NCBI RefSeq assembly: GCF_910593785.1
Contig: NZ_CAJVAP010000009.1
Span: forward strand, 1-64,000
Source: Leucobacter soli
GTDB lineage: Bacteria > Actinomycetota > Actinomycetes > Actinomycetales > Microbacteriaceae
Direction: 5' to 3'
Length of the DNA stretch: 64,000 bases
Part shown: positions 3,813-39,125 of the stretch, piece by piece
Layout: each line of letters begins with the position of its first letter
How positions within the stretch are numbered: position 1 is the stretch's first letter
Program-made: the position numbers and the translations under genes
The notes under the pieces: generated by a model
What the model was told of the DNA's origin: nothing
Databases searched by the model: none
The model's input: the letters and a program-made list of their open reading frames with translations, nothing else

Positions 3813-5164
3813 CCGCCGGCCGCGATGGTGCTCGCGGCGACGATACTCGCGGCGCCGGCGACTGCGGTCGTCTCGCGGCCGCGGAGATCGCGCTGGTGGC
3901 CGAGCAGCTGTGGCCCGGCTGTGCCCGGCCCGACTTCCGGGCCGTCGCGGGACCGGCGGGGACGACCGGATGGGTCGAAGTGGAGCGGCACGCGGTCCTG
4001 GAGCGCGGTGGGCGCATCGAACTGATCCTGCCCGCGCGCCGCACGGTCGCCGCGCGCGGCCTCGCCGCCTACGCCCGGCTCCGTCCGATGCGGCTCCGGC
4101 TCGGTCGCGCCGCCCTCGCCGCCGCCCTGGCCGCAGGCATCGTCCGCCCCCGCGCCTACATCGCGCTGGAGGCGCGGGCCGGGGGGCAGGATGGCGGAGC
4201 CCACGCCGGCGGCGCCGGCGGCGCCCGCGACGAGACCGTCGTCGGGCAGTTGCGCGCGGCGTTCGGCGCGGAGACCGACGTGCTCGTGCACGTGCGGCGC
4301 ACGGCCAACCGCAAAGCACTGCTCCAGGTGCTGGACGCCTCCGGGCGCACGCTGGGGTTCGCCAAGGCGGCGCGGGATCCCGCGTCGTCGGCCGGGATCC
4401 GGACCGAGCTCGCAGCGCTCACCGAGCTCGCGGCGCTCAACGACAGCGATGGCGATGGCAATGGCGACAGCCGGTCGCCTTGCGTCCGCACGCCCCGGGT
4501 ACTGCTGCAGGGATCGAGCGCCGGGCTGCCCTTCGTGATGACGGAACCGCTGCCGCGGGGTATTCGAGCGGTCGGCCGGGCCGGTTCGGATGCGCCGTCG
4601 ATCGCGGAGTTCGCCGCCCTCGCTCCGGTCGCCCGCTGGGCCCGCCCCGCGGAGAGCGGGCATCTCGCCCGCCTCCGTTCGCGGTCCGAGGATCCGGGGA
4701 TCGCCCGGCTCGAGCAGAGCGAGCTGCGGCAGAGGCTCGACGAACTGCTCCGGTGCGTCGAGGCGGAACCGGATCCCGCGCCCATCGCTCGCCGGTGGCA
4801 CGGCGACTTCGCCTTCTGGAACGTCGGGCGCACGCGCGACGGGCGTCTCTGGTGCTGGGACTTCGAGAACGTCGACCGCGACGCTCTCGCCGGCCTCGAC
4901 GCGATCCACTGGCACGCGAGCCGGCGGCGGCACGCTCGGGGAGCGGCCGGTGTCGCGGAGCGCGCCGGGATCCTCGCCGACGCGGCGGCCGTGCTGAGCG
5001 CCTTCGGCGCCGGCGGGGCGCGGGCGCGCGTCGTCCTCTACCGCGTCTACGTCGCGGAGGTCGCCGCGCGCGTGCTCGAGGCGGCCGCGAACGACGGCTG
5101 GGCCCGCGTCTGGTGCGCGCCGGCCGAGCTCGCGCGCCTCCTCGACGCGGCGCTCGCCGACTGA
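3809..5164 (+). CDS. APH/choline-kinase-fold protein of the polysaccharide locus
   Basis: Protein of 451 aa with a phosphotransferase (aminoglycoside-phosphotransferase-like) C-terminal half. The catalytic loop HGDFAFWN is at residues 331-338 and the metal-binding Asp is Asp351 (WDFEN). The N-terminal ~150 residues are poorly conserved and Ala/Arg-rich. Around 180-215 the sequence HVRRTANRKALLQVLDASG has the look of the small kinase lobe. The GTG start at 3809 overlaps the upstream stop. It could phosphorylate a sugar or another small molecule, but the substrate cannot be read from the sequence. Bona fide antibiotic resistance is unlikely in this setting. Confidence 0.65.
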   Translation: MTAGRDGARGDDTRGAGDCGRLAAAEIALVAEQLWPGCARPDFRAVAGPAGTTGWVEVERHAVLERGGRIELILPARRTVAARGLAAYARLRPMRLRLGRAALAAALAAGIVRPRAYIALEARAGGQDGGAHAGGAGGARDETVVGQLRAAFGAETDVLVHVRRTANRKALLQVLDASGRTLGFAKAARDPASSAGIRTELAALTELAALNDSDGDGNGDSRSPCVRTPRVLLQGSSAGLPFVMTEPLPRGIRAVGRAGSDAPSIAEFAALAPVARWARPAESGHLARLRSRSEDPGIARLEQSELRQRLDELLRCVEAEPDPAPIARRWHGDFAFWNVGRTRDGRLWCWDFENVDRDALAGLDAIHWHASRRRHARGAAGVAERAGILADAAAVLSAFGAGGARARVVLYRVYVAEVAARVLEAAANDGWARVWCAPAELARLLDAALAD

Positions 5165-5177
5165 GCGGGGTCCCCGC
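5165..5177. terminator. Short palindrome between convergent genes
   Basis: GCGGGG-T-CCCCGC lies between two convergent stop codons in a 29-bp gap and could serve both directions. It is small and has no U tract. Confidence 0.3.
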
Positions 5178-5193
5178 CCGCCGCGCCCGGTGC

Positions 5194-6111
5194 TCAGATC
5201 CCGCGGCCCAGCCGCTGGATCGTCTTCGCGACCCACTCCGGCGACATGAGCCGCAGCGAGATGCCGAGGGCGAGCCAGGCCTTGATCTGCCTCGGATCCC
5301 GGGTCACCGAGTCCCGCACCCAGCCGCGCGCCGCCTTCGCATCGCCGTTCGCCGCGCGCGCGAAGGCGATCTGACCGGCGAGCCGGGCGTGCGCCCTGCG
5401 GTCGCGCGCGAACCCCTCATGCGTGCGGAAGAGGTACTCCAAGCCCTCGGCGTAGGCGCCCCACTTGCCGAAGAAGTAGGAGTTCTGGCTCCACGTCACC
5501 GAGACGAGCGGCTCGTTGACGACCGCGATCCGGCCGGCTCGAGACGTCCGCAGAAGCAGGTCGTAGTCCTCGCCGTAGCTCCCCGGCAGCTCCTCGTCGA
5601 CCATACCGATCACCCCCAGCAACGCCGCCCGCCGGAACACGAAGGTGCTCGAATGCAGCCCCGGCAGCCGATCGCGCAACAGTTCGGCGTGCGTCACCGG
5701 ATCGACCGGCACCAGCCGCTCGTACTGGTTCTCGCCGTCGTCGAGCACCATCGCCGTGCCGACCAGGAGCGCGTCCGGATCGGCCGCGAACCGTTCCATC
5801 TGCGCGCGCAGCTTGCCGCTCCGCCACCAGTCGTCGTCGTCGAGGAAGGCGACGAAGTCGTGCGCGGCGGCGAGGATCCCCGTATTGCGTCCGCCGGCGA
5901 GACCCCGGCTCCGCTCGTTCGACACCGCGACGACGGTGCGCCCCGAGGGCACCTCGACTTCGGGCAGGTAGGGCTCCTCGGCGTCGAACACGATGATCAC
6001 CTGGATCTCGCCGACGTAGTCCTGCTGCAGGACGCTCTCGAGCGCTCGCCGCATCTGCTCGGGGCGATGATGCGTGGGGATGACCGCGGTCACCGGGGGC
6101 ATCGTTGCCAT
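5194..6111 (-). CDS. Family 2 glycosyltransferase
   Basis: Inverting GT-A glycosyltransferase of 305 aa. The N-terminal nucleotide-sugar fold begins VTAVIPTHHRPEQMRRAL. NERSRGLAGGRNTGI at 65-79 is typical of GT2, and the acidic DDDDWW at 91-96 contains the DXD-like metal site. SYGEDYDLLLR around 175-185 is the ED-type catalytic-base motif. The C-terminal ~80 residues are helical and may hold a TPR-like segment. No membrane segment is evident. The ATG at 6111 follows GAGGAG. It is the only gene of the polysaccharide locus on the minus strand and diverges from the membrane-anchored protein at 6226. Confidence 0.88.
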   Translation of the reverse strand: MATMPPVTAVIPTHHRPEQMRRALESVLQQDYVGEIQVIIVFDAEEPYLPEVEVPSGRTVVAVSNERSRGLAGGRNTGILAAAHDFVAFLDDDDWWRSGKLRAQMERFAADPDALLVGTAMVLDDGENQYERLVPVDPVTHAELLRDRLPGLHSSTFVFRRAALLGVIGMVDEELPGSYGEDYDLLLRTSRAGRIAVVNEPLVSVTWSQNSYFFGKWGAYAEGLEYLFRTHEGFARDRRAHARLAGQIAFARAANGDAKAARGWVRDSVTRDPRQIKAWLALGISLRLMSPEWVAKTIQRLGRGI

Positions 6112-6150
6112 ACCGACTCCTCACTGCCTCTTCACCTGCAAGGATCAGCA

Positions 6151-6158
6151 AGTATAGT
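6151..6158. promoter_or_regulatory. Back-to-back -10 boxes between divergent genes
   Basis: TATACT on the minus strand (6156 down to 6151) and TATAGT on the plus strand (6153-6158) overlap in the only AT-rich patch of the 114-bp divergent gap. Convincing -35 boxes are not visible. Confidence 0.35.
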
Positions 6159-6225
6159 GGGCATAGATCCGTCGGCCGTCGCAACGACGCGGAACACGGC
6201 ACGCGGGTCGAGGTTTGGGGGACCG

Positions 6226-6813
6226 ATGAAGCGCCGCCTGTGGATCTGGATTTCCGCCGCTGCCATCCTCGCCGCGGTCGCAGCGATCGTCGTGATCGCG
6301 CTCGCCATGAACTCGGCGCCCACCGCTCCGCCGGTCACCCCGCCGACCGCGGCCGCTCCCGATCCGTCGCCCGTGCCCGAGCCGGCCTCGACGGCGAGTC
6401 CCGACGAACTGGGCGACGACGTGGAGGCGCTCATCGCGCCGTTCATCGCCGCCGAGGCCGCCTCGCGGTCGGATCCGTCGACCCCGCTCGCGTTCGAGGA
6501 CGTGGCCGCGGGCGACGCGCTCGAGGATCTGAAGCTCGACGCCTTCGAGTTCTCGGAGAACGGCATGGTCCAGTCCGGCGCGCCGACGGTCGTGAGTGCC
6601 GAGGTCGAGGACTACGACGCCGACGCCTCGCCTCCGACCGCCGTCGTCCGGCTCTGCCTCGACTTCTCGAAGGTCGACATCCAGGCCCCCGACGGCCAGT
6701 CGGTGAAGTCGAGCGACGCCCCGCAGCGGGTGCCGTCGCTGCTGACGCTGCAGTCGATCGAGGGACGCTGGCTCGTGACGGCGCGCAGCTACCCGGACGA
6801 GTCGAGCTGCTGA
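6226..6813 (+). CDS. Membrane-anchored hypothetical protein
   Basis: Protein of 195 aa, not recognised. A single N-terminal anchor (KRRLWIW then a ~22-residue Ala/Ile/Val helix) is followed by a Pro/Ala/Thr-rich linker (residues 31-60) and an acidic extracytoplasmic domain. That domain resembles the small mixed alpha/beta lipoprotein-like domains common in Gram-positive bacteria. Two cysteines occur (in VVRLCLDFSK and at the C-terminus), perhaps forming a disulfide. The ATG at 6226 has GGGGGA upstream. Its position between a glycosyltransferase and a polymerase gene suggests an envelope role, but no function can be assigned. Confidence 0.7.
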   Translation: MKRRLWIWISAAAILAAVAAIVVIALAMNSAPTAPPVTPPTAAAPDPSPVPEPASTASPDELGDDVEALIAPFIAAEAASRSDPSTPLAFEDVAAGDALEDLKLDAFEFSENGMVQSGAPTVVSAEVEDYDADASPPTAVVRLCLDFSKVDIQAPDGQSVKSSDAPQRVPSLLTLQSIEGRWLVTARSYPDESSC

Positions 6814-6914
6814 CCGTGCGCCGCAGGAAGCGCGGATCGATCCGGGACGGTGGGCGATGTCAGGTGAACCGCATCAGCTGAGCGTCACCGCCCGGGTGCG
6901 CTGAGGAGGTGGAC

Positions 6915-8288
6915 GTGGCCGGAGTCGCTGCCCACGCACCCGCGGGTGCGCCGCCCGGGCTCCTGCGCGCCGGCGACCGCCTCCCATCGTGGCCGTTCAC
7001 CCTCGCATTCGCAGGCTTCCCGCTCTGGTGGTTCCTCGGCATCGTCGACTTCATCTGGATCCCCATGGCCGTCGTCATGGTGCTCTACCTGGTCCGCACC
7101 CGCGCGACCCTGACGCCCCGCGGCACCGGGGTCTGGCTGCTCTTCCTCGTCTGGGCGGGCTGCTCGGTCATCCAGCTCACGGCGGCGGGCCAGCTGCTGG
7201 TCTTCGGCTACCGCTACGCGATCTACCTCGCCTGCACGGTGCTCCTCGTCTACCTCTTCAACAACCGGCGCACGTTGACCGACCGCTTCGTGTCGGGCGT
7301 GCTCACCATCTGGTGGCTCATCACGGTGCTCGGCGGCGCGGCCGCGATGCTGCTGCCCACCGCCGTGTTCCGCACACCGCTCAGCATGATCCTGCCGGGA
7401 TCGCTGCTCGGCAACCCCTGGATCAACCACATGGTGATCCGCCGCTTCAACCAGTTCAACCCCGACTCCTACTTCGAACTCGACCCGCGGCCCAGCGCAC
7501 CGTTCCTCTACACGAACAACTGGGGCAACGTGTACTCGCTGCTCATCCCCTTCGTGCTCATCCATCTCATGCACATCCGGGGTACGAAGCGCTTCTGGCT
7601 GCTCTCCGCTGCGCTCGTCCTCTCGGCGGTCCCGGCGATCGTCACCCTCAACCGGGGCATGTTCATCGGGCTGGGGATCGCCGCCGTCTACGCCGCGTTC
7701 CGCTTCGCGCTGCTGCGGGATCTGCGCGCGATCCTGGCGCTCGCGACGGTCGCCGCCATCGGGGTCGGCGTGTGGACGCTGCTGCCGACTGAGGACAGCC
7801 TGGCGGCGCGCACCGAGAGCCGCAGCACCGTCGATCGGGCGACGCTCTACGTGCAGGCGGTCGAGGCGGTCCGGGACTCCCCGATACTCGGCTACGGCCG
7901 GACGATCGAGGGAGAGGACATCCGCGACCCCGTCGGCACCCAGGGCCAGTTCTGGATGGTGCTCGTGTCGCACGGCGTCGGGGCGACCGTGCTGTTCATG
8001 GGTTGGTTCCTGCTCGCATTCGTGCTGTCGCTCCGGCGGCGGGACCCCTGCGGCCTCGCCGCGAATACGGTGCTGCTCGTCGGCACGATTGAGTTCACCT
8101 ACTACGGGGCGATCCCGTACGGGCTGCCGATCATGATGATCGCCGCCGCGCTCGCGCTGCGCGGTCCGGTGAATGCGCCGGAGGATGCGCCGGTGGATGC
8201 GGGGGTCGACGCGCGGATCGACGCGCCGGCGACCGGCGCACGGTCGGCCGCCGGGAGTCGGGCGGTCGGGACGAAGGGGGAGGCATGA
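6915..8288 (+). CDS. O-antigen polymerase/ligase-like membrane protein (Wzy-like)
   Basis: Integral membrane protein of 457 aa with about 10-12 hydrophobic helices. The large loop after the middle helices contains the region NQFNPDSYFELDPRPSAPF. GRTIEGEDIRDPVGTQGQFWMV near 325-350 resembles the Wzy_C/O-antigen-ligase signature in which His and Arg residues polymerise or transfer the glycan. I chose GTG 6915 because AGGAGG (6904-6909) sits 5 nt upstream; GTG 6909 is the alternative. The last 50 residues are a low-complexity Ala/Asp/Gly-rich tail. Its stop overlaps the next start (ATGA). It probably polymerises the repeat units flipped by the Wzx-type protein at 18826. Confidence 0.78.
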   Translation: MAGVAAHAPAGAPPGLLRAGDRLPSWPFTLAFAGFPLWWFLGIVDFIWIPMAVVMVLYLVRTRATLTPRGTGVWLLFLVWAGCSVIQLTAAGQLLVFGYRYAIYLACTVLLVYLFNNRRTLTDRFVSGVLTIWWLITVLGGAAAMLLPTAVFRTPLSMILPGSLLGNPWINHMVIRRFNQFNPDSYFELDPRPSAPFLYTNNWGNVYSLLIPFVLIHLMHIRGTKRFWLLSAALVLSAVPAIVTLNRGMFIGLGIAAVYAAFRFALLRDLRAILALATVAAIGVGVWTLLPTEDSLAARTESRSTVDRATLYVQAVEAVRDSPILGYGRTIEGEDIRDPVGTQGQFWMVLVSHGVGATVLFMGWFLLAFVLSLRRRDPCGLAANTVLLVGTIEFTYYGAIPYGLPIMMIAAALALRGPVNAPEDAPVDAGVDARIDAPATGARSAAGSRAVGTKGEA

Positions 8289-9232
8289 CGCAGGGGGGCG
8301 GTGCGACGGTGCTGTTCATCGGCGGATGGGGGCGAAGCGGATCGACGCTGCTCGAATGCCTGCTGTCGGAGCTCGACGGCGTGACCGTGCTCGGCGAGGT
8401 CGTGCACCTCTGGGAGCGCGGACTGCGGGAGGGCGAGCGCTGCGCCTGCGGCAGCCCCTTCCCGGAGTGCCCGTTCTGGTCCGAGGTGGGCGACGTCGCG
8501 TTCGGCGGCTGGGCCAACGTCGACCCCGACCGGCTCGCTGTGCTGAAGCAGGCCGTCGACCGGCAGCGCCGGGTGATCCATACCGCCCGCAGGCGATTGC
8601 CCCGCGGCATCGCGCCGCTCGTCCACGAGTACGCCTCCTACTACCGGCGGGTCTACGACGCGGCGCGGCGCGTGACCGGCGCCCGCGTCCTGGTCGATTC
8701 CAGCAAGGAGATCCCGACGGCGCTCGCCGTCGGCCACGACCCGCAGGTGGACCTCCGGGTCGCGCACATCGTGCGGGACAGCCGGGGCGTCGCCTTCAGC
8801 TGGGCGAAGACGGTCGAGCGGCCGGAATCGCCGGAGGGCGACCTGATGACGCGATACTCGCCGGCGAAGAGCACGGCGTACTGGATCTCGGGGAACCTGC
8901 TCCCGGAGGGCCTCCGGTACCGGAGGATCCCGACATCCCGCCTCCGCTACGAGGACCTGGTCGCGCGGCCGCAGGCGACGGTCGCCGGCCTCTGGCGGGA
9001 GCTCGGGCTCCCCGGGGTCGCCGACCTCCCGATGACCGGCCCGAACGAGGTGCACCTCCACGGCACCCACTCCGTCGCCGGCAACCCGATGCGGTTCCGG
9101 CGCGGCCGGACGGTGCTCCGCGCCGATGTGCAGTGGCAGACGAGTCTGACGCGCCGGGACCGCCGACTGGTGACCGCGATGAGCCTGCCCATGCTGTGGC
9201 GATTCGGCTACCCGATCCGCGGGCGGGGGTGA
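8285..9232 (+). CDS. Sulfotransferase family protein
   Basis: Second predicted PAPS-dependent sulfotransferase (315 aa). The phosphosulfate loop is FIGGWGRSGSTLLECLL at about residues 12-28. The 3'-phosphate site is HIVRDSRGVAFSW at about 160-172. CACGSPFPECPFW at 54-66 carries three cysteines found in a subgroup of bacterial sulfotransferases. The start overlaps the polymerase stop (ATGA), and its stop overlaps or lies next to the next start, so the three genes form one translational unit. It differs from the enzyme at 2922, so the polymer may be sulfated at two positions. Confidence 0.82.
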   Translation: MTQGGGATVLFIGGWGRSGSTLLECLLSELDGVTVLGEVVHLWERGLREGERCACGSPFPECPFWSEVGDVAFGGWANVDPDRLAVLKQAVDRQRRVIHTARRRLPRGIAPLVHEYASYYRRVYDAARRVTGARVLVDSSKEIPTALAVGHDPQVDLRVAHIVRDSRGVAFSWAKTVERPESPEGDLMTRYSPAKSTAYWISGNLLPEGLRYRRIPTSRLRYEDLVARPQATVAGLWRELGLPGVADLPMTGPNEVHLHGTHSVAGNPMRFRRGRTVLRADVQWQTSLTRRDRRLVTAMSLPMLWRFGYPIRGRG

Positions 9233-9237
9233 GCGCG

Positions 9238-10176
9238 ATGACGAAGACCCTCCTCGTCGCCTCCGCCGGCGGCCATCTCGACGAACTGATGATCCACATC
9301 CGCAGGCTCGGCATCGACGAGCGGCAGGCCGTCTGGGTGACGAGCCCGACGGCGCAGACCGAGTCGCTGCTCGACGGTCGGGACGTCATCTGGGCGCCGC
9401 GCGTGGGGTCGGGCGAGGTCGGCAAGGCCGTGCGGGGCGTGCCGGCCGCGCTCGACATCCATCGTCGCGTCAGGCCGGATCTGGTCGTCAGCACGGGCGC
9501 GCTGTTCTCGACGCCGCACCTGCTCGCGGCCGCGCTCATGGGCTGCGAGACCTGGTTCATCGACAGCGCGACCCGCGTCGCCGGCCCGTCGTCCACGGGA
9601 CGCTTCGCCCGGCGCTTCACGCGGGCGAGACTCTTCGCCCAGGGCGAGGGGTGGGGGGATCCGGCCTGGGAGCGGGTGCCGAGCGTGTTCGACGCCTTCG
9701 AATCGACAGCGGCACCGGCGGACGGAGCGCCGGTGCTGGATCGCGTGACGGTGAGTCTCGGCTCCGAGCTCTGGCCCTTCCCGCGCGCCGTCGACCGCAT
9801 CCGCGAGCTGCTCCCCGGAGCCGAGATCACCTGGCAGGTCGGGGTCACGGAGTACCCCGACGGCGAGGGCCTCCTGCCGCAGTGGGTGCCCGCCGACGAG
9901 CTGCGGGCGGCCATCCGCGTCTCAGACCTCGTCGTGATGCATGCGGGGGTCGGCTCGGTGCTCGTGGCGCTCGATGAGGGCAAGGTCCCCGTGATCCTGC
10001 CCCGGAGGATGCGCCACGGCGAGATGGTGGACGACCACCAGACCGAGGTCGCGGCGGTGCTCGCCGAACGGGGCCTCGCGATCAGCGTCGACCCCGACGA
10101 ACTCGACCGCGCGCACCTCGAGCGCGCCGCCGGGCTGCGGGCGCGGCGGCGCGCCGAATTCGAGAAACAGGGGTGA
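9238..10176 (+). CDS. Fused Alg14-Alg13-like (PssD-PssE) glycosyltransferase
   Basis: Protein of 312 aa joining two halves that are usually separate. Residues 1-150 (LLVASAGGHLDEL, TGALFSTPH) match the Alg14/PssD membrane-recruiting subunit. Residues 165-312 (VTVSLGSELWPF, LPQWVPADELRAAIRVSDLVV, HAGVGSVLVALDEGKVPVILPRR) match the Alg13/PssE/MurG-type catalytic GT-B half. It is predicted to transfer a sugar from a nucleotide donor onto a lipid-linked intermediate at the membrane. ATG 9238 was chosen for its Alg14-like beginning. An in-frame GTG at 9229 overlapping the upstream stop (GTGA) is the alternative. Confidence 0.8.
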   Translation: MTKTLLVASAGGHLDELMIHIRRLGIDERQAVWVTSPTAQTESLLDGRDVIWAPRVGSGEVGKAVRGVPAALDIHRRVRPDLVVSTGALFSTPHLLAAALMGCETWFIDSATRVAGPSSTGRFARRFTRARLFAQGEGWGDPAWERVPSVFDAFESTAAPADGAPVLDRVTVSLGSELWPFPRAVDRIRELLPGAEITWQVGVTEYPDGEGLLPQWVPADELRAAIRVSDLVVMHAGVGSVLVALDEGKVPVILPRRMRHGEMVDDHQTEVAAVLAERGLAISVDPDELDRAHLERAAGLRARRRAEFEKQG

Positions 10177-30447: not shown

Positions 30448-32223
30448 TCAGCCGGTCGTGCCGCCGCAGGCGCTATCCGGGTCGATCCCGGTCCACGGCG
30501 ACTGACGGCCGTCGGGAGTCACCAGCCGGATCTCGATGAACGTGTCGCCGACGGCGAGCCCGGGAAACTCGATCGCCCACTGCGGGAGAAGGTCGGGGCT
30601 GAACCCCCACCAGCCGGGGCTCGGCACGGGGTCGGTGCCGGTGAAGAAGCCGAAGTCGAACGAGTTGCCGTACGGATCGGCGAAGACGCCGTCGGAGAAG
30701 ACATTGCCGGGCTCGACGCCCTCGAGCGCCGGATCGTAGAGCGGATGGAACAGTTCCACGGGCGCGCCGTTCGGCGCGGTCGCGCGGAGGCGGATCAGAC
30801 CGTACTCGTTCGCCTCGCCGAGCAGGATGGAGCTCTCGCCCGCGAACGAGCAGACGTACCCCGGGGTCAGCGACGGATCTGCTTCGTCGACGGGCGGCTC
30901 CGGCTCGCTCGGGCCGCCGTTCGAATCGTCGTCGCCGTCGTCCTCTCCGCCGTCGCCGTTGTCGCCGTTGTCTCCGTTGTTGTCGTTGTCGTCGTCGTCG
31001 TCGTCCGTGCCGTTGTCGTCGCGGCGCTCGCGATGGCCTGCGGCGCCCTCGTCATCGTCTGGATCGTCCTCGGAGTCGGCGGCGGGCTCCGGGTCCGTCG
31101 CCGTCCGATGGGTCCGCAGCATCGCGGTCTCGATGTCGAGGTCGTCGATCGGTTCATCCGAGGCGACGAGGCGCTCGTCCGCAGCCGCGGCCGGGGAACC
31201 GATCGCGGGGTCCGGGGCCACCAGGTTCGAGACGACGAGAGCGATGACTCCGGCCACGGCCGCAGCAGCGGCCACGGTGCCGGTCAGGACGGCCGCGGTC
31301 GCGACTCCGCCCGCCGCGGCGCCGGTTCCGATCCCCGCGCCGGCGGTCATCGCGCCGCTGCCTGCCGTCGTGCCGCCGCCGCCGGCGGATCCCGCTCCTG
31401 ACGCGGTCCCGGCCCCGGCGCCCGCTGCGGCTCCGGCCTCGAGTCCCAGACGGGAGAAGAGCGCGGCGGTGCCGGATCCGCCGAGGAACAGGCCGGCCAG
31501 GATGAGTCCGAGGCGTCGGTTGAGCGTCGCGGACTCGGCGGCGGCTGCGGCGCAGTTCGAGCAGTCGCCCAGGTGGGCCTCCACGTTGCGCGCGGCCCGC
31601 GCCGTGAGCTTGCCGCGCTGGAAGCGCTGCAGATGATCCAGCGTCGTGCGGCACTCGGCTGCGCTCAGCTCGCGGTTGACGTGCGCGCCGACCCAGGCCG
31701 AGCGCAGAGCGTCCTTCGCCCTCACGGCGAGCGCAGAGGTCGCATTGGGAGACAGCCCGATGAGACGCGCAGCCTCTCGCGGGGCCAAGCCCTCGACCTC
31801 GGTGTACCAGAGCACGGCCTGCCAGCGTTCGTCGAGCCCGGCGAACGCCTCCGCGACCGCGTTCAGGTCGAACGCGTTGTCCTCCCAGGGCCCGGCTTCG
31901 TGGAGGTCGGGGATCTGGTCGAGCTCGTCGGAAGGGCGCTCCCGCGATCGGAACTGATCGGCCGCGATCGTCCGGATCACCTGATAGAGGTAGGGGCGGA
32001 AAGCGCCGCGCGGGCCGCGGCCGTCGATGACGAGTTCGAAGATCTTGAGATAGGCGGCCGACACCAGGTCGTCCGGGTCGAGGCTCGGGGCGAGTCCGCG
32101 TGCGGCCGCCATCGCGGCGCCTCGATGGCGATCCCAGAGCAGCGAGAACGCATCGGTGCTCCCGTCGCGGCATGCGTCGAGCAGCTCACCGTCGGATGAC
32201 GCACCCCATCGTCTCTTCGGCAC
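30448..32223 (-). CDS. Single-chain ECF sigma factor / zinc-finger anti-sigma / membrane / ectodomain protein
   Basis: Protein of 591 aa. Sigma region 2 (about 15-95: DAFSLLWDRH, DPDDLVSAAYLKIFELV, FRPYLYQVIRTIAADQFRSR) and region 4 (about 130-185: LDERWQAVLWYTEVEGLAPREAARLIGLS) form an ECF sigma factor. A zinc-finger anti-sigma motif follows: His217-x3-Cys221-x2-Cys224. Then come a hydrophobic stretch, a Gly/Ala linker, a TM helix (about 308-335), a very acidic Asp/Asn/Gly linker (380-435) and an extracytoplasmic domain (450-591) with two cysteines (Cys458, Cys586). GTG 32223 was chosen because GGGAGGA is 6-7 nt upstream; ATG 32244 is possible. It diverges from a giant surface-protein gene, its likely target. 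Confidence 0.82.
   Translation of the reverse strand: MPKRRWGASSDGELLDACRDGSTDAFSLLWDRHRGAAMAAARGLAPSLDPDDLVSAAYLKIFELVIDGRGPRGAFRPYLYQVIRTIAADQFRSRERPSDELDQIPDLHEAGPWEDNAFDLNAVAEAFAGLDERWQAVLWYTEVEGLAPREAARLIGLSPNATSALAVRAKDALRSAWVGAHVNRELSAAECRTTLDHLQRFQRGKLTARAARNVEAHLGDCSNCAAAAAESATLNRRLGLILAGLFLGGSGTAALFSRLGLEAGAAAGAGAGTASGAGSAGGGGTTAGSGAMTAGAGIGTGAAAGGVATAAVLTGTVAAAAAVAGVIALVVSNLVAPDPAIGSPAAAADERLVASDEPIDDLDIETAMLRTHRTATDPEPAADSEDDPDDDEGAAGHRERRDDNGTDDDDDDNDNNGDNGDNGDGGEDDGDDDSNGGPSEPEPPVDEADPSLTPGYVCSFAGESSILLGEANEYGLIRLRATAPNGAPVELFHPLYDPALEGVEPGNVFSDGVFADPYGNSFDFGFFTGTDPVPSPGWWGFSPDLLPQWAIEFPGLAVGDTFIEIRLVTPDGRQSPWTGIDPDSACGGTTG
30924..31020. repeat. Trinucleotide-rich tract encoding the acidic linker
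   Basis: Dense GTC/GTT/GCC triplets, including six consecutive GTC at 30988-31005, encode Asp/Asn/Gly runs in the sigma-fusion protein. Being triplet-based, length changes would keep the frame. Confidence 0.7.
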
Positions 32224-32430
32224 TGCGAGTCCTCCCAAACTCATCTCGTACCCGTGCCCGACACTCCGCCGTGAAGCGTGTACCGAGCGTGCCGGCCCTG
32301 ACCGGCGAATCCCCAAGCATCCATTATGCGGTATTCGACCTGCGATGCCGATTCGGCCGAAGAAAACGGCAAGGCATCGAAGAATTCTCAGAACGCGCGT
32401 CACGATTCGCAGTGCGCACCGTGTTATCGG

Positions 32431-32487
32431 GTGCCCGGCCTCTGCGCGGAATCCCCCAAGGAGTACCCATGCGCAGGGGCCGGGTAC
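32431..32487 (+). promoter_or_regulatory. Long leader hairpin upstream of the giant surface-protein gene
   Basis: Arms 32431-32447 and 32471-32487 can form a 17-bp stem (two G-U pairs) around a 23-nt loop, 41 nt before the ATG at 32529. The rest of the 305-bp divergent gap (32224-32528) holds a relatively AT-rich patch at 32310-32400 and no gene I can support. Confidence 0.4.
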
Positions 32488-32528: not shown

Positions 32529-35500
32529 ATGGGGAACAATCGTCATATCGTCGGCATGCGCTCGGTGCGCGGAGCACACCGTGCGTTCGGCCGTGCGATC
32601 GTCCGCACCGTGGCGGGAGCGCTCTCGGTGCTGCTCGTCGGCTCGGCGATGGCGCTCGGCGCCGGAGTCGCACCGGTCCGCGCGATGGAGGGCGCCACGC
32701 TGCAACTGGTGAAGAAGGTCGACGGACAGAAGGAGCGCCTGGACCTCAGCCCTGGCGACACCGTCGAGTACCGCATCGACTTCAGTGTCGAGGACGAGGA
32801 CGCCGATTCCCCCGTCACCATCGTGGACCGACTGCCCGCGGAGTTCGCCGGCTGGAGGATCAGCAACCTGACGGCCACGGTCGGCGGTTCGACGACCGGC
32901 GTCACCCTGGAGCTCCCCGGCGTCGTCGATCCGGGCCCGGCTTCGCCGTCACCGGCCGAGGGCACGCTCGGCGCCGACGCCGGCGACCTCACGATCACGG
33001 TCGGGGTCGCCCTTCCGGTGCAGGCGGGAGAGGGGAACGCGAGCGGACTCGGGATGTCGACGGGCAAGCAGGGCGTGCTCCGCTACCGTCTGACCGTTCC
33101 CGAGGGCATCTCGCCGCTCGACCCGGCCCTCGACCGCCCGCTCGTGAACACCGCCACCTTCTCCGCGAAGTCGGGAGCACAGGATCTCAGCACCGAGGAC
33201 ACGGCGACCATCTCGATCGAGGTTCCGATCGAGGCCGATGTCGAACCGCGCAAGACCTGGGCGCCGGCCGGGCAGGACTTCCAACCGGGCCGGAGCTCCC
33301 AGCTCGTCATCGGCGCCGTGCAGGCCTCGAACGTGGACGCCTCCCGCCTGAGCCTGCAGGATCCCGCCGATCCCGCGCTTGCCCCTGACGGCGCGACGGC
33401 GCTGCACGCCGACAACCCGTTCAACTACGTCGACTTCGCCGGCTTCGCCTCCCCGAGCGACCCGACGACGAACCTGCCCGCCGGGGCGACCGCTGCCGCC
33501 GTGCAGGTGTACCGTCTCGCCGACGGCGCCTGGAACTGGGCGGACTGGGACGCCGCGATCCCGAACGACCGGATCGCCGGCGTGCGCACGAGCTACACCG
33601 GAGCCATCCCGCCGGGGACCGAGGCCTCGCAGGGCTTCGCCGTGGAGCAGCGGGCGACGCATCGCTCGACCGGCGAGAGCCTCTCCGCCGGCTACGAGAT
33701 CGAGAACGACGTCCGCGCCACCGTGGAGGTCGCCGATCATCCCGCCGTCTCGAAGGAGACCGAAGCACCGTTCGCGGTCGGCGCCGAACGCATCGAGGTC
33801 GACGCCCAGAAGCGCTTCTACGCGCTGCCCGACGGCGACGAGACCGCCAACCTGACGGGGATCACCGCGGGCGACTCGGTCGGGGTCGTGCTGCGCGCGA
33901 TCAACCGCGAGGCACCGCGGAGCACCGTGCTCGACCGTCTGATCGTCAAGGAGCCCGGAGCGGGCTCGGATGCGCGCTTCTTCGGCGCCGACCTCGTCTT
34001 CGACGGCTTCGGCGACGATACGAGCGCGATCTGGCCGACCGGTGCGACGCAGGCGGAGGTGACCTGGGAGCACCCGGGCGGGCCCACCACGGTCGCTGTA
34101 CCGGAAGGCGATCCGCTTCCCGCGGCCCCGGCCGGCGCGACCGGTTTCGAGATCGCGTTCACCGGAGCCATCGAACCCGGCGCGTACAGCGAGATCCGCT
34201 ACGAGCTGCGCTCGAACCCGGCCGAGACCTTCGTCCCGGCCGGTGGAACCGCCGGCCCGTTCGTCAATGCGATCGACGTGGTCGGCGAGCGCGCCGGGCT
34301 GGACCCCGACGATGCGGGTGCGAGCGCCACCGTCTCGTACGTCGCCCCCCGGATCGACGTTGAGATCGACAAGCGGGTGGGCCCGGGCACGGTGCTGCCC
34401 GGCCAGACGGTGATCGTGCAGCTCGACACCGAGGTCTCGACCGCGGGCGGGCGGACCAAGCCGACCAGGATCGTGGTCGAGGACGTCATGCCCGAGGCGC
34501 CCGCCGGAGCCGGAACGTTCTGGGACGCCTTCGACGCGAAGCAGATCCTGCCCCCCATCAGCCGCCCGACCAACGGCGGCGAACAGGCGACGCTGACCAT
34601 CGAGCGACGCGGCGCGAGCGGCGCCTGGCACGTGCTGGCGACCGACCCCGACGAGAACGCCGCGATCGACGTGCCGACCGGCACGACCGGCCTGCGCTTC
34701 GTCTACGAGAACACGGCGGGCCTCTCGCAGGCGACGTACGTGAAGCCGAACATCTCGTTCACGGCGCGTACGCACACCCGGACCGCGGGGGAGCCGACCT
34801 CCGGCACCTTCGACAGCCCGGTGCGCTACGAGAACACGGCGACGGCCACGGGCACGGGCGAGCTCGACTCCCGCGTCGTCACCGGTTCCGACGAGGATCG
34901 CATCGACGTCGGCATCCGCGGCACCGAGGGCGGCACGGGCCCCGGCCCGGGCGGCGTCTGGGCGGCGAAGCAGTGGGCGCACGACTACCTGACCTCGCAG
35001 TCGGGCGCGACCTCCTCGACGGTCCAGTCGTGGGCCGTCGCCAGGGACGGATACCGGACGGTCGAGCTGCAGGACCCTGCGAGCCCGTCGGCGACCGGAG
35101 CCGGCACGGTGTTCGAGGCCTTCGACCTGACGCACATCCGACCGATCGGCTATGAGGCCCCGGCAGGCAGCGGGACGATCGATCCGCTGCTGCGGTGGGA
35201 CACCGTCGCGGCCGTGGAGCTCTGGGACGGAACGAGCTGGAACCCGGTCTCCCCGCCCGCCGGCGGCTGGATGGGAGCGAACGGTTTCGTCGGACACGAG
35301 TTGACCGCATCGCAGCGCGCCAGCGCGCTCGGCGTGCGCCTGGTGGTCGAGGAGAACACAGCCGCACGGCAGGCCGCGCACGACCCGCAGGATCCGGACC
35401 TCACCGCGCCCGAGCCGGGCAGCGGCGTGACGGCCTCGGCGGACACCCGCTCGTTCCGCCTCGACTGGCAGTTGCGCGACACGGCCCGCACGGCCGACGG

Positions 35501-38500
35501 CTCGCTCAAGTGGGTCAAGGAGACGGGCACCGCGTTCAACTGCGGTGCCGCAGCCGACGGCTGCGTCGACAACACGTTCGGGGTCGTCGCTCACCCCGAG
35601 ACTGGTGAGCCGGTGCGCGCCGGCGGCAACGACACCATCCAGCTCGTAGACGGGACGACGAACGTCGGTCTGGGCAAGCTGGTGCGCCCGCTGCCGACGA
35701 GCGGCTCCACCCCCTCCGCCGACAGCATCGGCCTCGTCGCGCCGAACCCCGGCGAGCTGGAGCAGGCCGACTACCCCCGCGCGCGCTACACACTGACGGC
35801 GAGGAACTCCTCGACGCAGCCGCAGGGGTCGCGCGGGGCCATGAAGCTCGGCAAGATCCGCGTCACCGACACGTCGACCGCCTGCGGGGCGACCTGTCCG
35901 CTCCCCGCCTCGACCCTCGACTTCGCGTCGTCGCCGTTCGCGGGCCGCGACTTCGCGAACGAGGTCGCGAGCATCGACGGGAACCACTTCGACGAGTTCG
36001 ACCTGACCGGCGTGGGCTTCGGCACCCTGCCCGGCTACATCGACGCCGCCGAGAGCACCGTAGAGCTGTGGCTCTACGACGGCACGCCGTCGGGCACGAC
36101 CCGGGTCTTCACCCTGCAGCAGGCGATCTCGGAGGCCGAGGCCTTCGTCGACGCGCTGCCGAACGCCATCGGGATCGCGGTGACCTACTCGGGCACCGAC
36201 CCCGGGCTGAACGGCAACCGGATCCTGGTGGGCGACGACCTCGTCATGCACCTCGACGTGCGGCTGCGCGCCACGGAGCGACTGAGCGGCCGTCCCGTGC
36301 AGGGCGGCGAGTCGGGCAGCGCCGTGAACGTGCCGAACACGGCGCTGGCGCGCGGATGGGACGCCGTCGTCGACCCGTCGACGCAGCCGACCGACACCGA
36401 CGGGGCGAACATCGAGCTCACCCAGGCGCGCGTGCGCGTCGGGCTCGAGAAGTCGATCTCGGTCGATCACGGCGACTCGAGCGATCGGACGATCCTCGAG
36501 ACCGACCCGCAGGCGCCCGTGAACGTGCGGTTGACCGCCGATCCGGACGGGTCGACCGCGCCGCTCGACACGCTGCGGATCGAGGATCGCACCGCGTCGT
36601 TCTGGGACCGTTTCGCGTTCGTCTCGTTCGGCACGCCGACGCATCCGACGGATGCGGATTCGGCGCGGCTCGAGGTGATCGTCGACGGGGACTGGGAGGT
36701 CTTCGCCGACTACACCGGCGACCTCGACGAGATCCGGGGCGTGAGGGCGACATTCTCGCGGACCACGGGCAACGGCCTGTTCCCGCAGGGCGCCACGTCG
36801 TGGAACGCATCGTGGGGCACCGCGACGCTGCCGTTCACGGTCGTGCTGCGCGACGACGCCGCCGTCGACTGGAGCGACGACCAGGAGGAGAACCTGGCGA
36901 CCGCATTCGCCGAGAACGAAGAGTACGGCGAGGCGGAGGCCGAAGACGACGACCGGGTCGTCTTCTCACCCGGCACGAACGCGATCGAGGTGATCAAACG
37001 GGCGCCGAACGACACCGGCGATCACCGCATCGATCCGCTCGTGAGCCTGCCCTGGCGACTCGTGTTCACCAACACCGGAACCGGCTATCTGCCGGTCACG
37101 AAGGTGACCGACGCCCTGCCCGCGGCCCTCGACTGGGACGGAGAGCAGCCGACGGTGAACGTGACGCCCGGCGACTCGGGCAGCGGCTTGGGCGAGGACC
37201 CGAGCATCGAACTGAGCGCCGACGGGCGAAACCTGGTCTTCGCGTGGCCGGCCGGGCAGCGGATGCACCCGGGCGAGCGGGTGGAGGTCGAGCTCGGCCT
37301 CATCCTGCAGCCGGTGGGCGCCGGCCAGCGCGCCACCAACGGGCTGATCGTCGAGACCGGCGTGCCGCTCGACACCTGCACGCAACCCAGGACGCACGGA
37401 CAGGATCCGCAGGCCCCGACCGCCGAGAACCTCTGCACGAACAACAACTTCGTGGAGCCCGAGGCCGGCACGGTCATCGGCGCGCGGAAGACGGTCAACG
37501 GGGAGCCCGCCGAGACGCTCGGCGAGCACCTGGTCTCGGGCGCGCTCGACGTGCGCACCGACGAGGAGTGCGCGGCGGGCAACTTCCTGCCCATCGGCTC
37601 GGACTACACGCGCAACCCCTGCGCCTCGTACACGGCCGTCGGCGCGACCGACACCTGGAAGCTCGAGAACATGAACGTCGGCACCAACGCGCTCTCGCGC
37701 ATGACGATCGTGGACATGCTGCCGAACCCGGGCGACAAGATGCTCGCCGGCGGCGCCGCGCGCACCTCGACGTTCCGGCCCGTGCTCGTCGATCCCTCCG
37801 CCATCCGCCTCACGGGTCTGCCCGACGGCGCGGTCTACACGGTGGAAGTCACGACGAACCCCGCCGCCTGCGTGGGTGCGGGCTCCGGCTCGCTCTGGCT
37901 GGCCGACCCCGAGTGCTCGGACACGACGGCGAACCCCGCCAACATCTGGACGCTGCTCGACGACTACACCGGCGAGATCCGCGACATCGTGGGGCTCCGA
38001 TTCAAGGTCGACATGACCGCGAACGCCCTGCCGCCCGCGGGCAGCGTCGTCGTCGAGTTCGAGACCGTGAACCGCGTCATCGACCAGTCCGACGCCGGCC
38101 TGCAGCCGACGCTCGAGCAGTTCGCGGAGCGCCAGTTCGCCTGGAACCAGAACGGCCTGATCGCCTGGGACACGGCGGGCAACCGCGTCAACCTGCCGAA
38201 GGCCCCCCAGCGCGCGGGCGTCACCGTCAAGACCGGCTCGCTGGTCGTGACGAAGCAGGTGCAGGGCGAGGGCGCGGACAACGCTCCCGACGAGTTCCCC
38301 GTCGAACTCGTGTGCACCGTGCCGAGCGGTGCCGCCGATCCTGCGCGGGTGCCGCTCGACATGGGCGAGCACGCGACCCTGTCGGTGCCGAAGAACGGCT
38401 CGGTCACGGTGGACGGCATCCCCGTCGGCGCGGACTGCACGGCACGCGAGACCGGCGAGGTCGGCGCGCACGGCGAGGTCGGGCGTTCGATCGAGACGGC

Positions 38501-39125
38501 TCCGGGGGTGGCGCCCGCCACCGACGGCCTTTCGGCCGACATCCGGATCCGGGTGCTGCCGGGGGACGCCGCGACCGAACTGAAGCTCTCGAACACCTAC
38601 ACGCTCGGCGAACTGGTGATCGAGAAGAGCCTGGCGAGCGGCGACGAGCACGAGCTCGACCCCGAGCTGGCGAAGAAGAGCTTCGAGTTCGAGCTCGTCT
38701 GCCCGGTGGCCGGGACCGGTGAGGATGTACGCCGCGTCTTCTCGCTCCGGGCAGGAGAGCGGCACGGCGAAGCCGGCCTGCCCGTGGGCGCGGTCTGCAC
38801 ACTGACCGAGACCGGCACCGGCGGTGCGGCAGAGACGACGATCACGGTCGGCGGCGACGAGACCGACGGCACGAGCCGCGACGACATATCGATCGCCGAA
38901 TCGGGCGGCCACGTGCTGGTCACGAACCTCTTCCCCGGCGTCTTGTCGGAGAACGAGGAGGATCACGACGACAGCGGGATCGACAGCGACGATCTCGAGC
39001 GGACCGGTGCGCAGGACGGCCTGCTTCTCGCCGCGACCGGACTCGCACTCCTGGCGCTCGGCACGATCGCGGTCGGTGCCGCCCTGAGCCGCCGATCGCG
39101 TGCCACGGGCACGAGCGGGTCGTAG
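32529..39125 (+). CDS. Giant LPxTG-like cell-surface protein with DUF11/isopeptide-type repeats
   Basis: Cell-surface protein of 2198 aa. A signal peptide occupies about 1-55 (FGRAIVRTVAGALSVLLVG, then VRAMEG). A series of beta-sandwich, DUF11-like repeats begins TLQLVKKVDGQKERLDLSPGD. Others begin near nt 33790, 34350, 36430 and 36980, each with a Lys near the start and a DRLP/DVMP/DALP turn; such repeats often form isopeptide bonds. Two SpaA/DUF5979-like domains follow (nt 38240-38600 and 38605-38930; LVVTKQVQG, LVIEKSLASG, with paired Cys). The C-terminus has LERTG (2156-2160), a TM helix and SRRSR, resembling a sortase signal. ATG 32529 has GGGGAGGAA upstream. Probably an adhesin or fibre. 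Confidence 0.82.
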   Translation: MGNNRHIVGMRSVRGAHRAFGRAIVRTVAGALSVLLVGSAMALGAGVAPVRAMEGATLQLVKKVDGQKERLDLSPGDTVEYRIDFSVEDEDADSPVTIVDRLPAEFAGWRISNLTATVGGSTTGVTLELPGVVDPGPASPSPAEGTLGADAGDLTITVGVALPVQAGEGNASGLGMSTGKQGVLRYRLTVPEGISPLDPALDRPLVNTATFSAKSGAQDLSTEDTATISIEVPIEADVEPRKTWAPAGQDFQPGRSSQLVIGAVQASNVDASRLSLQDPADPALAPDGATALHADNPFNYVDFAGFASPSDPTTNLPAGATAAAVQVYRLADGAWNWADWDAAIPNDRIAGVRTSYTGAIPPGTEASQGFAVEQRATHRSTGESLSAGYEIENDVRATVEVADHPAVSKETEAPFAVGAERIEVDAQKRFYALPDGDETANLTGITAGDSVGVVLRAINREAPRSTVLDRLIVKEPGAGSDARFFGADLVFDGFGDDTSAIWPTGATQAEVTWEHPGGPTTVAVPEGDPLPAAPAGATGFEIAFTGAIEPGAYSEIRYELRSNPAETFVPAGGTAGPFVNAIDVVGERAGLDPDDAGASATVSYVAPRIDVEIDKRVGPGTVLPGQTVIVQLDTEVSTAGGRTKPTRIVVEDVMPEAPAGAGTFWDAFDAKQILPPISRPTNGGEQATLTIERRGASGAWHVLATDPDENAAIDVPTGTTGLRFVYENTAGLSQATYVKPNISFTARTHTRTAGEPTSGTFDSPVRYENTATATGTGELDSRVVTGSDEDRIDVGIRGTEGGTGPGPGGVWAAKQWAHDYLTSQSGATSSTVQSWAVARDGYRTVELQDPASPSATGAGTVFEAFDLTHIRPIGYEAPAGSGTIDPLLRWDTVAAVELWDGTSWNPVSPPAGGWMGANGFVGHELTASQRASALGVRLVVEENTAARQAAHDPQDPDLTAPEPGSGVTASADTRSFRLDWQLRDTARTADGSLKWVKETGTAFNCGAAADGCVDNTFGVVAHPETGEPVRAGGNDTIQLVDGTTNVGLGKLVRPLPTSGSTPSADSIGLVAPNPGELEQADYPRARYTLTARNSSTQPQGSRGAMKLGKIRVTDTSTACGATCPLPASTLDFASSPFAGRDFANEVASIDGNHFDEFDLTGVGFGTLPGYIDAAESTVELWLYDGTPSGTTRVFTLQQAISEAEAFVDALPNAIGIAVTYSGTDPGLNGNRILVGDDLVMHLDVRLRATERLSGRPVQGGESGSAVNVPNTALARGWDAVVDPSTQPTDTDGANIELTQARVRVGLEKSISVDHGDSSDRTILETDPQAPVNVRLTADPDGSTAPLDTLRIEDRTASFWDRFAFVSFGTPTHPTDADSARLEVIVDGDWEVFADYTGDLDEIRGVRATFSRTTGNGLFPQGATSWNASWGTATLPFTVVLRDDAAVDWSDDQEENLATAFAENEEYGEAEAEDDDRVVFSPGTNAIEVIKRAPNDTGDHRIDPLVSLPWRLVFTNTGTGYLPVTKVTDALPAALDWDGEQPTVNVTPGDSGSGLGEDPSIELSADGRNLVFAWPAGQRMHPGERVEVELGLILQPVGAGQRATNGLIVETGVPLDTCTQPRTHGQDPQAPTAENLCTNNNFVEPEAGTVIGARKTVNGEPAETLGEHLVSGALDVRTDEECAAGNFLPIGSDYTRNPCASYTAVGATDTWKLENMNVGTNALSRMTIVDMLPNPGDKMLAGGAARTSTFRPVLVDPSAIRLTGLPDGAVYTVEVTTNPAACVGAGSGSLWLADPECSDTTANPANIWTLLDDYTGEIRDIVGLRFKVDMTANALPPAGSVVVEFETVNRVIDQSDAGLQPTLEQFAERQFAWNQNGLIAWDTAGNRVNLPKAPQRAGVTVKTGSLVVTKQVQGEGADNAPDEFPVELVCTVPSGAADPARVPLDMGEHATLSVPKNGSVTVDGIPVGADCTARETGEVGAHGEVGRSIETAPGVAPATDGLSADIRIRVLPGDAATELKLSNTYTLGELVIEKSLASGDEHELDPELAKKSFEFELVCPVAGTGEDVRRVFSLRAGERHGEAGLPVGAVCTLTETGTGGAAETTITVGGDETDGTSRDDISIAESGGHVLVTNLFPGVLSENEEDHDDSGIDSDDLERTGAQDGLLLAATGLALLALGTIAVGAALSRRSRATGTSGS

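What the first reader, a model, noticed from the sequence alone, without database searches (positions are those of the whole stretch)
30448..32223. One polypeptide carries an ECF sigma factor, its anti-sigma zinc finger, a membrane helix and an ectodomain
The frame runs unbroken from sigma regions 2 and 4 through a His-x3-Cys-x2-Cys anti-sigma motif, a TM helix, an acidic spacer and a two-cysteine outside domain. ECF factors with C-terminal regulatory extensions are known, but the outside domain is not one I recognise. An outside signal could control transcription without a separate anti-sigma protein, perhaps by cleavage that frees the sigma part.
Basis: partly seen in the sequence, partly recalled or inferred. 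Interest (0 to 1): 0.7.

Follow-up and report, generated by a model that had tools for sequence, protein, structure and literature searches.

The report
Membrane-tethered sigma factor controlling surface protein
A bacterial gene-switch protein (sigma factor) is built as one piece with its own inhibitor, a membrane anchor and an outside domain, and a conserved promoter next door suggests that its job is to turn on a large cell-surface protein when something outside is sensed.

Summary
The gene is on the minus strand (32223 to 30448, 591 aa): sigma regions 2 and 4, a C-x25-H-x3-C-x2-C anti-sigma zinc motif, two hydrophobic segments, an acidic spacer and a two-cysteine C-terminal domain. Twenty-five aligned relatives have the same uninterrupted layout, so it is no frameshift. 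The architecture is known (ECF48/52/53). The outer domain is confidently predicted all-beta, perhaps Ig-like, but matches no family.

What appears new is the circuit. The host is a Leucobacter. The divergent neighbour is a 2198-aa sortase-anchored surface protein. Its promoter, GCGTCAC-N16-CGTGTTA, has ECF form, is the only exact copy in this genome, and is followed by a covarying 16-bp hairpin. Promoter plus hairpin occurs (E<1e-6) in 28 of 31 Leucobacter genomes with a close sigma orthologue and 0 of 23 without. Eight of 13 intergenic sites without a sigma gene nearby also precede sortase-anchored proteins.

Best reading: a tethered ECF sigma dedicated to surface-protein genes, probably released by proteolysis. 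That this sigma reads the promoter, its cleavage and its signal are inferred. Outside Leucobacter the surface-gene link is mostly missing.

The parts
30448..32223 (-). Fused ECF sigma factor / zinc anti-sigma / membrane / outer-domain protein, 591 aa, GTG start at 32223
31669..32202 (-). Sigma part (about residues 8-185): region 2 at 29-96, region 4 at 121-173
   Evidence: Pfam and NCBIfam; model helices
31549..31653 (-). Anti-sigma zinc domain zf-HC2 (residues 191-225), C191-x25-H217-x3-C221-x2-C224
   Evidence: conservation
31456..31512 (-). Hydrophobic segment 1 (residues 238-256), continuing the anti-sigma helix; may not cross the membrane
31219..31275 (-). Hydrophobic segment 2 (residues 317-335), the likelier transmembrane helix; predicted helix 316-334
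30451..30888 (-). Outer domain (residues 446-591), all-beta, with invariant C458 and C586
32397..32426 (+). ECF-like promoter GCGTCAC-N16-CGTGTTA reading towards the surface gene; the only exact copy in the genome, and the only site of the shorter pattern at up to one mismatch
32431..32487 (+). Conserved hairpin at the expected 5' end of the surface-gene mRNA; 13 of 16 consensus pairs have changes on both sides
32529..39125 (+). Divergent surface protein, 2198 aa: N-terminal hydrophobic segment, two DUF5979 stretches, C-terminal LAATG + hydrophobic segment + basic tail (sortase-type anchor)

Best explanation
The protein is a one-polypeptide ECF signalling system of the ECF52/53 type. The zinc anti-sigma domain, joined straight to region 4, holds the sigma part inactive at the membrane; a flexible Ala/Gly stretch, a membrane helix and a long acidic spacer carry a small, probably disulfide-bearing beta domain outside. 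A signal on the outer domain frees the sigma part, probably by cleavage in or near the membrane. The freed sigma recognises GCGTCAC-N16-CGTGTTA and switches on the divergent giant surface protein, whose mRNA starts with a stable hairpin; in some relatives it also reaches a few unlinked sortase-anchored proteins. Shown here: architecture, conservation, the promoter-like element and hairpin, their co-occurrence with the sigma, and the kind of genes downstream. Inferred: that this sigma reads this promoter (about 0.75), that the outer domain is outside (about 0.85), that release is proteolytic (about 0.5). The signal is unknown.
For: Domains and motif conservation. A gene with a sortase-type anchor lies within two genes and 3.5 kb at 19 of 29 Leucobacter orthologue loci (window included) and at 20 of 30 more distant family loci, against 9 of 257 control genes. 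The promoter has ECF form: -35 GTCAC and -10 CGTS; the ECF41 promoter is TGTCACA-n16-CGTC (passages of PMC3426412). The exact pattern gives 24 sites in 54 Leucobacter genomes against 3 for its reversed control, and one in this genome. Promoter-plus-hairpin model: E<1e-6 in 28 genomes, all among the 31 with a close orthologue (best E<1e-68), 0 of 23 others; Fisher p 2e-12. Of 13 intergenic sites without a sigma family gene nearby, 8 lie upstream of sortase-anchored proteins. In G035, which lacks a close orthologue, the model found a promoter followed by a surface gene and then a divergent fused sigma gene. Big_6 domains in 8 of 36 aligned members and the invariant cysteine pair support an external tail. 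One Peptidase_M50 and four sortase genes are in the genome.
Against: In other genera the sigma mostly has no surface gene nearby (7 of 58 loci do) and lacks the promoter (0 of 58 strict). In five Leucobacter loci (L046-L049, L051) the element faces thymidine phosphorylase, in L042 BrkB, in L043 a lipoprotein-like gene, in L031 no co-directional gene for 3 kb, and in L197 it lies beside a divergent sigma with no gene behind it. The distant family loci lack this promoter (0 of 30 strict), so a general pairing rule needs other promoters there. Among the 31 orthologue genomes G047 and G029 have only weak sites (3.4e-4, 1.7e-4) and G049 none. The model was trained on many of the same loci, which it finds by construction, and the E<1e-68 limit was set after seeing the values (there is a gap between 5.2e-69 and 3.4e-56). 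Two hydrophobic segments would put the C-terminus inside if both cross. No transcript, binding or cleavage data exist here.
Confidence: 0.7

Rival explanations
1. The promoter and hairpin belong to another regulator; the fused sigma is only a neighbour and controls other genes such as its own or envelope genes elsewhere.
For: The element persists where the surface gene is gone. Relatives outside Leucobacter mostly lack both promoter and surface gene.
Against: Co-occurrence with the close sigma orthologue, 28 of 31 against 0 of 23; ECF-type form; the G035 promoter-surface-sigma arrangement.
Confidence: 0.2
2. Release is not by cleavage: the zinc domain lets go of sigma by a change of shape or zinc loss, with the whole protein staying at the membrane.
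For: Zinc anti-sigma domains can act as redox switches (passage of PMC8999054). The SCO4117 authors mention conformational change as well (passage of PMC5826349).
Against: Membrane-fused IutY is released by proteolysis (PMC8999054 passage); a Peptidase_M50 gene is present, though such genes occur in all 14 control genomes.
Confidence: 0.3
3. Both hydrophobic segments cross the membrane, so the acidic spacer and beta domain are cytoplasmic and the sensor is the Ala/Gly-rich loop.
For: Two hydrophobic segments in 29 of 29 Leucobacter orthologues at a lowered threshold; a review speaks of one to two helices.
Against: Ig-like, NPCBM and ricin-lectin tails in relatives; invariant cysteine pair; segment 1 is weaker and its helix breaks after residue 246 in a low-confidence model; strongly acidic stretch after segment 2.
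Confidence: 0.15
4. Two genes joined by a frameshift or assembly error.
For: None found.
Against: Same continuous layout in 25 aligned relatives and long uninterrupted frames in relatives of other genera.
Confidence: 0.01

Closest known systems
ECF52 (SCO4117 of Streptomyces coelicolor)
   Same: Sigma 2/4, zf-HC2, membrane segment, long low-complexity spacer and external domain on one chain (passages of PMC5826349).
   Different: No NPCBM in the window protein; spacer acidic instead of proline-rich; the likely target here is a local surface gene, while SCO4117 is described as pleiotropic; the SCO4117 motif CSGYN-17bp-SRHA differs from GCGTCAC-N16-CGTGTTA.
ECF53 and ECF48 (fused anti-sigma groups of Actinobacteria)
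   Same: Zinc domain and one to two transmembrane helices fused to the sigma (passage of PMC8999054).
ECF41 sigma factors
   Same: C-terminal regulatory extension; a single neighbouring target; -35 TGTCACA and -10 CGTC, sharing GTCAC and CGT (passages of PMC3426412).
   Different: The ECF41 extension is a soluble SnoaL-like domain with no zinc finger or membrane part (partly a passage of PMC8999054, partly recalled).
SigI/RsgI of Clostridium thermocellum
   Same: Several paralogous tethered sigma systems sensing outside substrates and steering extracellular proteins, with RseP and ClpXP steps (abstract of PMC12203970).
   Different: Sigma and anti-sigma are separate proteins; SigI is not an ECF sigma (recalled).
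IutY of Pseudomonas putida (ECF243)
   Same: Sigma and anti-sigma in one membrane protein, freed by Prc and RseP (passage of PMC8999054).
   Different: Iron-starvation cell-surface signalling of a Gram-negative.

Membership tests
ECF sigma factors | Regions 2 and 4 only | tested here: met
   (r4 below its cut-off), TIGR02937 over cut-off, r4 in 35 of 36 aligned members
Zinc-binding anti-sigma (ZAS) domain | C/H-x~25-H-x3-C-x2-C (spacing recalled) | tested here: met
   zf-HC2 over cut-off; H217, C221, C224 invariant, C191 nearly
ECF52 | Zinc finger plus membrane segment fused to sigma | tested here: met
ECF52 | Carbohydrate-binding (NPCBM) C-terminal domain | tested here: not met
   no NPCBM in the window protein, present in L212 and L213
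ECF52 | Proline-rich extension | tested here: not met
   spacer is Asp/Glu-rich here, although proline-rich in several orthologues
ECF53 | Fused zinc domain with one to two TM helices | tested here: met
ECF53 | Placement in the ECF53 clade by sigma sequence | not testable with these tools
   no ECF group models or named reference sequences; two classification papers asked for by DOI are not held
Sortase-anchored surface protein (neighbour) | N-terminal signal, C-terminal LPxTG-like motif, hydrophobic stretch, basic tail | tested here: met
   N-terminal hydrophobic segment; LAATG + hydrophobic stretch + basic tail by regular expression; four sortases in the genome
Bacterial Ig-like outer domain | Sequence or fold match to a bacterial Ig family | tested here: inconclusive
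   no Pfam hit; all-beta model pLDDT 90; best Foldseek hits mostly immunoglobulin chains but E>=0.019

The most novel reading that the evidence does not exclude
Fused ECF sigma/anti-sigma proteins of Microbacteriaceae form a set of self-contained surface-coat switches: each paralogue senses the envelope or a neighbour through its own outer domain and turns on its own sortase-anchored protein from a private promoter, here with a built-in 5' mRNA hairpin. With 13 or more family members in some genomes (13 being the number scored per genome) this would be a modular system for choosing the cell surface without separate anti-sigma proteins.
Probability: 0.35. Interest if true: 0.75.

Novelty: new variant of a known kind. 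Interest (0 to 1): 0.58.

Why it matters
Fused sigma/anti-sigma proteins of actinobacteria are listed in reviews, but in the passages I read only one ECF52 member had been characterised and its promoter motif was called theoretical. Here sequence alone gives a candidate promoter, a candidate target and a short list of further targets, testable with one reporter and one purified sigma domain. If true, it would show how some actinobacteria choose which giant surface proteins to display, and it is a compact, one-gene switch from outside signal to promoter. The hairpin at the predicted mRNA start is a further, unexplained and testable element.

Tried and rejected
Frameshift or two-gene artefact: rejected. 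Shared domain between the outer domain and the surface protein (a sensor that mimics its target): hhalign gave probability 0.5%. Known RNA family for the hairpin: none in Rfam up to E 1. Solved-structure relatives of the outer domain by sequence: none up to E 10; Foldseek hits not significant. Same promoter upstream of the sigma gene elsewhere: strict form 19 of 29 in Leucobacter, 0 of 58 in other genera, 0 of 30 at distant family loci, control 1 of 324; a looser form is uninformative (19, 3, 1, and 29 of 324). Papers linking fused ECF sigmas to sortase substrates: none seen in the listings; only open-licence PMC papers are held.

Limits: gene calls come from my own codon-usage script, not a standard gene finder, and can miss or cut genes (for example in L052, L191 and L260); anchors come from a regular expression; loci of one genus are not independent. 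The 22 Leucobacter loci (14 of 22 with an anchor nearby) largely repeat the genomes and were not added to the counts. Names thymidine phosphorylase and SdhA/SdhB were checked by Pfam on one protein each, BrkB; NAD(P)H-hydrate, ptsI and other neighbour names are by eye. The list of 31 orthologue genomes was typed from the best_E column into.

Full report
What is there. The reported gene is real and lies on the minus strand, 32223 to 30448, 591 aa, with a GTG start behind GGAGG. It encodes sigma region 2 (29-96), region 4 (121-173), zf-HC2 (191-225), two hydrophobic segments (238-256, 317-335) separated by an Ala/Gly-rich stretch, an Asp/Glu-rich spacer and a C-terminal domain with two cysteines. 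TIGR02937 (ECF sigma) passes its cut-off. The zinc motif is C191-x25-H217-x3-C221-x2-C224; the last three are invariant in all 26 aligned sequences and C191 in at least 90%; C458 and C586 of the outer domain are invariant. At least two orthologues (L085, L086) carry the outer domain twice, each copy with its own cysteine pair.

Relatives. Of 100 related genomes, 74 have a match at E<=0.001, many with several places; 13 places, the number scored per genome, is reached in three, so real numbers may be higher. A scan of named genomes gave 80 loci; the closest 22 are all Leucobacter, and some are the same contigs as genomes listed as 'same genus', so the window is from Leucobacter. In a sample of the class 47 of 148 genomes match at E<=1e-15. 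Outer domains differ widely: Big_6 in 8 and Big_13 in 5 of 36 aligned members; NPCBM (2), I-set Ig with ricin-type lectin (1) and Big_6 (1) among nine further relatives. This looks like a common sensor chassis with exchangeable outer domains.

Outer domain. Twenty sequences gave a model of residues 446-591 with mean pLDDT 90 and pTM 0.84, beta strands with short helices. Foldseek against the PDB listed mostly immunoglobulin chains, none significant (best E 0.019; query TM-scores 0.30-0.44 in the 50 rows shown). I call it possibly Ig-like. The full-length model is poor overall (pLDDT 68, pTM 0.39); it shows helix 222-246 running out of the zinc domain and a separate helix 316-334. I lean to one crossing, at 317-335, with the tail outside; this is not proven.

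Neighbourhood. In Leucobacter the gene often sits by the succinate dehydrogenase genes and BrkB: a gene of the SdhB cluster within five genes at 18 of 29 loci, of the BrkB cluster at 17 of 29. On its other side, divergent, is usually a large gene. In the window this is a 2198-aa protein with two DUF5979 stretches and a LAATG-type sorting signal. A gene with such an anchor lies within two genes and 3.5 kb at 19 of 29 orthologue loci (window included, 46-100% identity), at 20 of 30 more distant family loci (30-44% identity, Leucobacter and other genera of the order), but at 7 of 58 loci of other genera from the named scan. Among genes of 22 control stretches, 3 of 257 carry an anchor and 9 of 257 have one that near. 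Orthologue loci share ancestry, so these fractions are not independent observations.

Promoter and hairpin. The intergenic region holds a block conserved across Leucobacter. Read towards the surface gene it is GCGTCAC-N16-CGTGTTA (32397-32426), with CGTC in place of CGTG in some relatives. The form matches ECF promoters; the ECF41 consensus is TGTCACA-n16-CGTC (passages of PMC3426412). A hairpin of 16 consensus pairs follows where the mRNA should start: 13 of 16 pairs have changes on both sides, 93% of cells pair against 33-52% when slid, and 0 of 500 shuffles reached the covariation score (12 of 500 reached the number of pair types). The 17 sequences are related, so these controls are not probabilities. 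Rfam has no match up to E 1.

Specificity. The pattern CGTCACGAT-N14-GTGTTA with up to one mismatch gave 33 sites in 54 genomes, against 4 for the reversed pattern, and one in this genome. Seven of the 33 lie inside predicted genes and were set aside (in L199, L200, L201, L203, L204 twice, L205). The exact pattern GCGTCAY-N16-CGTSTTA gave 24 sites against 3. A covariance model of promoter plus hairpin, built from 25 sequences, gave 43 sites at E<=0.01 in 33 of 54 genomes, with filters that lose weak matches. Sites with E<1e-6 occur in 28 genomes, all among the 31 with a close orthologue (best E<1e-68); 0 of 23 other genomes have one (Fisher p 2e-12). Most orthologue loci were in the training set, so the informative parts are the absence elsewhere and the sites not used in training.

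Unlinked targets. Thirteen intergenic sites have no sigma family gene in the stretch fetched around them: nine from the model (G016:552091, the only one of them used in training; G023:C128; G018:C96; G004:95855; G004:911656; G042:C95:15032; G004:3247224; G042:C116; G024) and four from the pattern alone (G018:C54, G021:C17, G042:C96, G045:C6). Eight lie within a few hundred bases upstream of a sortase-anchored protein: 1382 (G016), 1373 (G023), 667 (G018:C96), 752 and 726 (G004), an open frame of 1451 codons (G042:C95), 531 (G018:C54) and 517 aa (G021:C17). G004:3247224, G042:C116, G042:C96 and G045:C6 do not; G024 is unclear, with secreted-protein-like frames in pieces downstream. At the sigma loci of G016, G023 and G004 no surface gene is adjacent (L051, L047, L043), so there the promoter is found with a surface gene elsewhere as well as beside the sigma. 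In G035, without a close orthologue, a weak site (E 0.003) precedes a surface frame of 626 codons with LATTG and, directly behind it, a fused sigma/zinc/membrane gene: an independent copy of the same logic.

Exceptions. The element faces thymidine phosphorylase in L046-L049 and L051, a lipoprotein-like gene in L043, BrkB in L042, and in L031 no co-directional gene for 3 kb; in L197 it lies beside a divergent sigma gene with no gene behind it; L052 is unclear. Some may be remnants after loss of the surface gene: in L037 the phosphorylase lies directly behind the surface gene in the same direction. In G029 the weak site is about 6 kb from the sigma, before a long frame without an anchor. Strict promoter matches upstream of the sigma gene are absent at the distant family loci (0 of 30) and in other genera (0 of 58).

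Mechanism. The anti-sigma zinc domain is taken to mask the sigma part; a signal at the outer domain leads to release, by analogy with IutY and the model proposed for ECF48/52/53 (passages) and for SCO4117 (passages). The genome has one Peptidase_M50 gene, which is near-universal and so only permissive. The freed sigma then drives the surface gene. A 5' hairpin could protect the long mRNA or set translation; this is speculation.

Known or new. The architecture is known. Streptomyces-like relatives with NPCBM show that the window protein belongs to the same broad group as ECF52, but it lacks the NPCBM and proline-rich features, and placement in ECF52 or ECF53 by sequence could not be tested. I saw no report of a surface-protein target, this promoter or the hairpin in the listings. 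Hence: new variant of a known kind.

Noticed in passing
window 32431-32487 (+): Covarying hairpin at the predicted 5' end of the surface-gene mRNA, with an in-frame ATG at 32469 and AAGGAG inside it; it could control translation. No Rfam match up to E 1.
   Followed up: partly
L046-L049, L051, L042: The same promoter and hairpin face thymidine phosphorylase or BrkB instead of a surface gene, so those genes may have come under the sigma's control.
   Followed up: partly
L260 8682-12494: In another genome of the genus a related promoter is followed by a surface gene and then by a divergent fused sigma gene, as in an operon.
   Followed up: yes
L065 and L068: Fused sigma proteins of 1356 and 1321 aa with very long outer parts.
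   Followed up: no
L067, L070, L176, L179, L188: Fused sigma paralogues near LPLTG-anchored genes, by eye possibly pilins, suggesting control of sortase-assembled pili.
   Followed up: no
L093, L094, L097, L099, L105, L106 and others of L093-L150: In other genera a family member sits next to an SdhB-like gene (by eye) without a surface gene; its role there is open.
   Followed up: no
L038, L039, L042, L077: Orthologues whose outer domain is lost or replaced by proline-rich or frameshifted-looking tails.
   Followed up: no
L206 96-1226 (-): Second sigma/zinc/membrane gene in the window's own genome (376 aa) with only a short acidic tail and no outer domain.
   Followed up: partly
L254 about 5125-9430: Long frame whose last residues look like read-through of a sequencing adaptor (recalled), so the contig may be misassembled there.
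   Followed up: no
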